DNA of 64,000 nucleotides from Candidatus Allofournierella merdipullorum. Lineage in GTDB: Bacteria; Bacillota; Clostridia; Oscillospirales; Ruminococcaceae. Location: the NCBI GenBank assembly GCA_019116345.1, contig DXBV01000025.1, positions 1 through 64,000 of the forward strand. Reading direction: 5' to 3'. The notes under the pieces were generated by a model. The model searched no databases. It was not told the DNA's origin and saw nothing but the letters and a program-made list of their open reading frames with translations. Both the position numbers and the translations under genes were made by a program. Positions 11,153 to 11,566 of this stretch are shown piece after piece. Every line of letters starts with the position of its first letter. The stretch's first letter is position 1.

Positions 11153-11566
11153 CAAAAAGCGCTCCCCCAGCGCCGGGGTGGCATAAGAAAACGGCGGTTC
11201 TGCCGTAGGATTTTGGCGCATAAAACACGCAGAGCGGCTCCCCAAGCCACCAAGGCTTGAGGGGCCGCTCTTTGTGCTTTTTCATCCAAAATCCTGGGGC
11301 GTGGGCTGCGGGCGCAACAAAGATGCGCCCGCTCTGCTTTGCAGACCGCCCAGCCGGTCCAAGACCCCAACGGGGCCTTGGCCGCTTTGCGGACCCGGAC
11401 TGCGCAGCACCAGGAAGCGAGCGATTTTGATGGGAGCGCAAGAAAAAGCGCCGCAGGCACCCTTGGTGGTTGTCAAGGCGCTTTGACGCCGCGATACCGC
11501 AAAAGCGCCCGCTTCCCGGCGCCGTTTTCTTACGGCACCCCGGCCAAAAAGGGGAGCGCTTTTTTC
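11153..11566. repeat. ~415-bp multi-branched inverted-repeat element (closing stem plus four internal hairpins) between convergent genes
   Basis: Closing stem: AAAAAGCGCTCCCC..CCGGGGTG..CATAAGAAAACGGCG pairs with CGCCGTTTTCTTACG..CACCCCGG..GGGGAGCGCTTTTT. Inner hairpins at 11207-11295, 11308-11332, 11356-11395, 11413-11515. Confidence 0.8.

What the first reader, a model, noticed from the sequence alone, without database searches (positions are those of the whole stretch)
11153..11566. 415-bp multi-branched inverted-repeat element between ptsI and the opposing gene
Seen: a ~37-bp closing stem (14 + 8 + 15 bp with small loops) joins both ends. Inside are four separate hairpins: 11207-11295 (aggattttgg..gcggctccccaagcc / ggcttgaggggccgctc..ccaaaatcct), 11308-11332 (gcgggcgca / tgcgcccgc), 11356-11395 (ggtcc..ccccaacgggg..ggacc), 11413-11515 (ggaagcgagcgatttt / aaaagcgcccgcttcc, with aaagcgcc / ggcgcttt inside). 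Both ends finish in A/T runs, so each strand also has a terminator-like end. It fills essentially the whole convergent intergenic gap and has no convincing ORF. Either a MITE-like mobile element or a large structured non-coding RNA.
Basis: seen in the sequence. Interest (0 to 1): 0.75.

Follow-up and report, generated by a model that had tools for sequence, protein, structure and literature searches.

The report
Mobile palindrome nested in gene terminator
This is one copy of a previously undescribed family of small non-coding jumping DNA elements from gut bacteria that land mostly in the loop of transcription-stop hairpins, and this copy has itself been invaded by a second small element.

Summary
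The structure is real (z = -10), but it is layered. The outer A-run/stem/T-run is a host intrinsic terminator between ptsI and the convergent gene. In its loop sits a 373-bp element with 22-bp terminal inverted repeats and two hairpin arms (B1, B2). An independent 98-bp palindromic element (C) is nested between the arms.
The element is mobile and MITE-like. I collected 53 insertions from Fournierella, Gemmiger and related gut genera (C-free copies are 278-279 bp in the best-sampled ones); one further copy is in Subdoligranulum. 45/53 carry an identical flanking dinucleotide, nearly always AA or TT (2-bp target duplication; permuted 21+/-3). Joined flanks rebuild strong terminator hairpins in 26/53, against 1% of random AA/TT sites. 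Relatives have five orthologous empty sites, mostly plain terminators.
Stems covary strongly (30/93 pairs compensated, 0/500 shuffles), but G-T and A-C half-steps are equally frequent (94 vs 96). This argues for strand-symmetric, DNA-level maintenance rather than a one-strand ncRNA. No autonomous parent was found; IS30, IS110 and IS200-type enzymes were tested and none fits.
New variant of a known kind.

The parts
11154..11167 (.). left arm of the host intrinsic terminator (AAAAAGCGCTCCCC), the insertion target
   Evidence: pairs with 11551-11564; a terminator of nearly the same stem is at the orthologous site in G004 (L092)
11551..11564 (.). right arm of the host intrinsic terminator (GGGGAGCGCTTTTT)
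11169..11170 (.). left copy of the 2-bp target duplication, here AG (AA in the G004 orthologue)
11546..11547 (.). right copy of the 2-bp target duplication (AA)
11172..11544 (+). whole MITE-like element (373 bp; 279 bp in C-free copies of this genus)
11172..11193 (+). left terminal inverted repeat GCCGGGGTGGCATAAGAAAACG
11523..11544 (-). right terminal inverted repeat (reverse complement GCCGGGGTGCCGTAAGAAAACG)
11196..11300 (+). hairpin arm B1; its tip is a terminator-like hairpin, replaced by unrelated terminator-like hairpins in other lineages
   Evidence: L133, L248
11301..11398 (+). nested module C: independent palindromic element, absent from other copies in this genome; dispersed without A/B in genus g9
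11410..11519 (+). hairpin arm B2 with the conserved GGCACCCTTGGTGGTTGTCAAGG tip

Best explanation
The feature is a non-autonomous, MITE-like DNA element that inserted into the A/T-containing loop of a host intrinsic terminator between ptsI and the convergent gene, and was itself later invaded by a second palindromic element (C). SHOWN from sequence: 22-bp terminal inverted repeats, no transposase ORF, dispersed copies, a 2-bp (AA or TT) target duplication, target = terminator loop in most insertions, empty sites in relatives, nested C module, conserved three-way fold (TIR stem + arms B1 and B2) with compensatory changes. INFERRED: movement is by a trans-acting transposase or recombinase that makes a 2-bp stagger and recognises AA/TT in the loop of a GC-rich hairpin, perhaps as an extruded cruciform or single strand. 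Terminator loops would act as a safe haven, because the inserted palindrome folds on itself, lets the base stem and U-tract re-form, and carries its own terminator-like hairpin on B1. Arm symmetry would be kept at DNA level, by need of the enzyme for a folded DNA substrate or by template-switch correction of quasi-palindromes.
For: Copies in own genome and in 4 of 4 congeners; TIR pairs in further genera; core motif in 56 stretches of the 84,980-species collection, all but one in Oscillospiraceae-type gut genera, plus Subdoligranulum variabile. 2-bp duplication identical in 45/53, permuted 21 +/- 3, inverted agreement 0/53, 3-bp agreement only 11/53. Terminator targeting: score >= 24 in 26/53 vs 1.0%, >= 18 in 35/53 vs 4.8% of AA/TT sites. 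Five orthologous empty sites in relatives, most of them plain terminator hairpins, and shortened copies at two more orthologous sites, one of them the window site. A 278-bp element of Gemmiger An194 (L114) is identical to one of F. massiliensis (L144) at a different site, while orthologous flanks elsewhere differ by ~12%. Compensated stems 30/93, 0/500 shuffles; G-T = A-C half-steps.
Against: No autonomous element with these ends was found, so the enzyme is unknown. Unlike ordinary TIRs, the outermost ~6 bp vary between genera (with compensation) while the inner YAAGAAAAC is constant. The window copy's own duplication is imperfect (AG/AA). About a third of insertions do not rebuild a strong hairpin. 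The B1 tip varies and in this genus is a weak terminator; the terminator scan did not flag it as a long-stem terminator.
Confidence: 0.87

Rival explanations
1. A large structured non-coding RNA (or ribozyme) transcribed from one strand, spread by copying.
For: Strong compensatory covariation; conserved single-stranded motifs such as GATTTTGATG and GTGGTTGTC; partial complementarity of B1 and B2 tips, both changed together in Subdoligranulum.
Against: G-T and A-C intermediates equally frequent on strand-neutral pairs (94 vs 96 cells; 50 vs 36 columns in all copies, 26 vs 26 in 13 clusters); no promoter-like site; no Rfam family near threshold; insertion in either orientation inside terminators; B1/B2 tip pairing broken in Ruthenibacterium and BRZ-Gemmiger copies. 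A positive control for the G-T/A-C test was not obtained (only 4 tRNAs).
Confidence: 0.07
2. REPIN/RAYT-like or IS200-type element: hairpins moved as single strands by a Y1 transposase.
For: Palindromic, extragenic, dispersed; minimal 44-bp form looks like a REPIN; Y1 transposase genes in 8 of 10 carriers.
Against: A clean 2-bp target duplication is not expected of Y1 transposition (own knowledge); Y1 gene not detected in two carrier genomes (G249, G207); no copy of the element within the loci fetched around those genes.
Confidence: 0.08
3. Integron-like or other site-specific recombination (tyrosine or serine recombinase, or an IS110-type enzyme) acting on folded DNA, the 2-bp repeat being a crossover core. 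This differs from the best explanation only in the kind of enzyme.
For: Two-base identical flanks would also arise from a 2-bp core; folded-DNA substrate with conserved inner motif; ISPpu9/10 give 2-bp repeats in REP palindromes (PMC1525189; IS110 family by own knowledge).
Against: Both AA and TT are used, without a fixed relation to element orientation in the copies inspected; IS110 enzymes are not detected in the window's genus; serine and tyrosine recombinases were not surveyed.
Confidence: 0.2
4. Incidental palindrome-rich 3' UTR.
For: GC-rich host with many strong terminators.
Against: Dispersed near-identical copies, target duplication, empty sites.
Confidence: 0.01

Closest known systems
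Bacterial MITEs in general; pneumococcal RUP, BOX and SPRITE repeats (review PMC10969869)
   Same: short non-coding palindromic dispersed elements with terminal inverted repeats; pneumococcal elements also insert into one another, and SPRITE resembles a rho-independent terminator
   Different: here the target is the loop of host intrinsic terminators; 2-bp AA/TT duplication; two-arm fold conserved by compensation across several genera; no parent IS known
IS elements that insert in REP palindromes (ISPsy8, ISPa11, ISPpu9/10, ISRm22; PMC1525189)
   Same: target is a hairpin; ISPsy8 and ISRm22 insert at its symmetry axis; ISPpu9/10 give 2-bp direct repeats
   Different: those are autonomous and target one repeat sequence; here many unrelated terminators share only structure and an AA/TT loop
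Bacterial-C group II introns (PMC8919778)
   Same: use rho-independent terminators as harmless landing sites
   Different: they insert just after the terminator and are retroelements; this element inserts in the loop, has TIRs and no intron-encoded protein
REPINs with RAYT transposases (own knowledge)
   Same: extragenic hairpins moved in trans; minimal 44-bp form is REPIN-sized
   Different: target duplication present; no linked Y1 gene found
IS30 family (own knowledge: 2-3 bp duplication, palindromic targets)
   Same: duplication length and taste for palindromes
   Different: resident IS30 copies have different ends

Membership tests
MITE | short (<~600 bp), no transposase gene | tested here: met
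   278-373 bp typical, up to 472 with nested C; no transposase ORF
MITE | terminal inverted repeats | tested here: met
   22-bp TIRs, 96% of cells paired in the terminal helix
MITE | target-site duplication | tested here: met
   2 bp, 45/53
MITE | dispersed multiple copies and empty sites | tested here: met
MITE | shares ends with an autonomous IS | tested here: inconclusive
   none found with matching TIRs in 396 family genomes or held loci; more diverged ends not excluded
structured non-coding RNA | covariation with G-U tolerated on the transcribed strand | tested here: not met
   covariation yes, G-T excess no; no positive control
structured non-coding RNA | transcript | not testable with these tools
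   no RNA-seq
REPIN/RAYT | linked Y1 transposase, no target duplication | tested here: not met
IS30-mobilised MITE | resident IS30 with the same TIRs | tested here: not met
IS110-mobilised element | resident IS110 transposase | tested here: not met
   not detected in the window's genome, its tested congeners or F. massiliensis
group II intron | ribozyme or intron-encoded protein | tested here: not met
   no group II intron among Rfam matches up to E = 10; no intron-encoded protein ORF within the element

The most novel reading that the evidence does not exclude
A recombination system that recognises intrinsic terminators by DNA shape (an extruded hairpin with AA/TT in its loop) and moves a folded two-arm DNA element, using an enzyme unlike any described transposase, with arm symmetry maintained on both strands.
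Probability: 0.2. Interest if true: 0.8.

Novelty: new variant of a known kind. Interest (0 to 1): 0.58.

Why it matters
It shows a mobile element that uses the loops of intrinsic terminators as a safe harbour, in several genera of common gut bacteria, with pre-insertion sites available in relatives. It separates DNA-level from RNA-level covariation by comparing G-T with A-C half-steps, which warns against calling every covarying hairpin array an ncRNA. If the enzyme were found it would be a structure-directed, 2-bp-stagger integration system.

Tried and rejected
Rfam scan at E up to 10: only chance hits. TIR and core-motif scans of viral contigs: none. Element against phages: none; plasmids: one, Subdoligranulum variabile. 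Parent IS: TIR search in 396 family genomes and with 3 mismatches in four genomes gave MITE copies, remnants and chance-level singles; no inward TIR pair 0.6-4.5 kb apart in held loci. IS30 (PF13936), IS110 (PF01548) and Y1 (PF01797) surveys: ends differ, absent from key carriers, or no linkage. Hypothesis that AA versus TT follows element orientation: no relation in the copies inspected. B1-B2 kissing interaction: complementary in most copies, co-changed in Subdoligranulum, broken in others, so inconclusive. A looser folding-based terminator test was too permissive (15.8% of controls passed) and was replaced. Literature: searches with IS, MITE, palindrome and terminator terms found no description of an element inserting in terminator loops; subscription papers are not covered.

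Full report
Observation. It lies between the stop of ptsI (11145) and the stop of a convergent 317-aa ORF (11573).

It is repeated. A search of the window's own genome (2.47 Mb, 119 contigs) finds pieces of it on eight other contigs, several copies ending at contig ends, presumably because the repeat breaks the assembly. All of them skip window 11301-11398. In relatives, that skipped piece (module C) occurs without the rest: genus g9 (G012, G146) has many dispersed or tandem copies. In several A/B copies of other genomes C sits at one or both of two positions, between the B1 and B2 arms and in the tip of B2 (L018, L148, L153, L161). So the window feature is a nest: host terminator > element A/B > element C.

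Anatomy of the A/B element. TIR 11172-11193 / 11523-11544, arm B1, arm B2. The usual C-free copy is 278-279 bp in g1 and g42. A minimal 42-45-bp TIR-TIR form also occurs at about ten sites. At one orthologous site Gemmiger An87 has the full 278-bp copy and An194 a ~30-bp one (site 6), so at least some minimal forms probably arise by internal collapse.

Host range. The B2-tip motif scanned over a collection with one genome for each of 84,980 species gave 56 stretches. All but one (a lone Patescibacteria hit, L167, with no element around it) are in Fournierella/Allofournierella, Gemmiger, Pygmaiobacter, Ruthenibacterium, Angelakisella and one MAG labelled only Clostridia. A further copy is on a 386-kb S. 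variabile plasmid. By identical sequence G001 is Candidatus Fournierella excrementigallinarum, G004 Ca. F. pullicola and G156 F. massiliensis, so the window's genome is a congener of the first two.

Mobility. For 53 non-redundant insertions the two bases next to the ends [AGCC...GGCT] are identical direct repeats in 45: AA/AA 27, TT/TT 16, TG/TG 2. Permuting the right flanks gives 21 +/- 3. Inverted agreement is 0, and extension to 3 bp drops to 11. This is a 2-bp target duplication, not stem symmetry. In the window copy it is AG/AA, but the collapsed G004 orthologue keeps AA on the left. A 278-bp element of Gemmiger An194 and one of F. massiliensis are identical at different sites, although orthologous flanking DNA of these two species elsewhere is about 88% identical.

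Target. Joined flanks form a terminator hairpin with the AA/TT in a 3-10-nt loop: score >= 24 in 26/53 insertions against 51 of 4884 AA/TT dinucleotides in the window, many of the best control sites looking like real terminators; score >= 18 in 35/53 against 4.8%. Own-mate flanks pair better than swapped mates (-20.5 vs -12.7 kcal/mol). Orthologous empty sites are seen for five insertions (L137, L114, L008, L122, L139), for example AAAAAGGCCCCCGGAGTTCTCCGGGGGCC in An194 against GGCCCCCAAA[element]AACTCCGGGGGCC in F. massiliensis; the site of L122 is a less typical terminator.

Structure and level of constraint. In 26 C-free copies 97.5% of cells pair, 30 of 93 pairs show double compensatory changes, and 0/500 shuffles or slid structures come near. 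To ask which strand, I used only pairs predicted on both strands and counted half-steps. An RNA read from one strand should tolerate G-U more than A-C. Observed G-T versus A-C cells: 41 vs 62, 101 vs 100, 94 vs 96 after removing one reverse self-match; with 13 divergent representatives 39 vs 34, with 26 columns each. By columns in the full set there is a slight G-T excess (50 vs 36). The balance fits DNA-level maintenance (cruciform or ssDNA substrate, or quasi-palindrome correction), or equal need on both transcripts; it does not fit a one-strand ncRNA well. A tRNA positive control failed for lack of data.

B1 tip. In most lineages the B1 tip is an A-run/stem/T-run hairpin, e.g. AAAAAGCCTGGCAATCC-ACAAA-GGATTGCCAGGCTTTTTT in S. 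variabile, and it is an unrelated terminator-like hairpin in the BRZ Gemmiger lineage (L133/L158). By inspection, the element seems to carry its own bidirectional terminator; the simple scan does not recognise stems that extend into the T run, so this is not independently confirmed.

Enzyme. No autonomous relative found. IS30 copies (own genome C50; G207) have other ends. IS110 is not detected in the window's genome, its tested congeners or F. massiliensis. IS200-type Y1 genes are common but not detected in two carriers and not linked. The outer TIR bases vary between genera while YAAGAAAAC is constant, which is unusual for DDE elements and may indicate recognition of structure (inference).

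Relation to the known. It meets the tested definition of a MITE except for an identified parent. Pneumococcal RUP/BOX/SPRITE elements nest in one another (PMC10969869), some IS insert at REP symmetry axes, and ISPpu9/10 give 2-bp repeats in REPs (PMC1525189), and bacterial-C group II introns use terminators but just behind them (PMC8919778). I found no described element that lands in the loop of terminators, within the limits of the held library.

Noticed in passing
L020, L024, L029, L033, L037, L040 (G012): Module C recurs many times in genus g9, partly in tandem, inside a longer conserved context (CCAATCTGGGGG ... CCCCCATNCCCCCAT plus a further hairpin): another uncharacterised repeat family.
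   Followed up: partly
L156, L157, L160 (G249, G379; Pygmaiobacter-like genus g91): Several extra 16-30-bp hairpins are inserted at junctions of the element, as if still smaller palindromes move or arise there.
   Followed up: no
L218 (about 372-386) and L092: Collapsed remnants: a terminator whose loop is just the first 15-20 nt of the left TIR.
   Followed up: partly
L096, L133, L158, L121: The B1 tip is replaced by unrelated terminator-like hairpins in other lineages, as if terminators were swapped or captured.
   Followed up: no
L228:198-1253 (G000:C50): IS30-family transposase in the window's own genome, close behind a terminator hairpin, with ends unrelated to the element.
   Followed up: partly
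B1 tip and B2 tip of alignment A1: CCACCAAGG and CCTTGGTGG are complementary; in S. variabile both change together (CCACAAAGG/CCTTTGTGG), but pairing is broken in Ruthenibacterium and BRZ Gemmiger.
   Followed up: partly
L255-L265: IS200-type elements in these genomes carry a CCCCCGGCTAAGCCGGGGG hairpin resembling a head-to-head junction of the MITE ends; probably chance in a GC-rich terminator-like hairpin.
   Followed up: no
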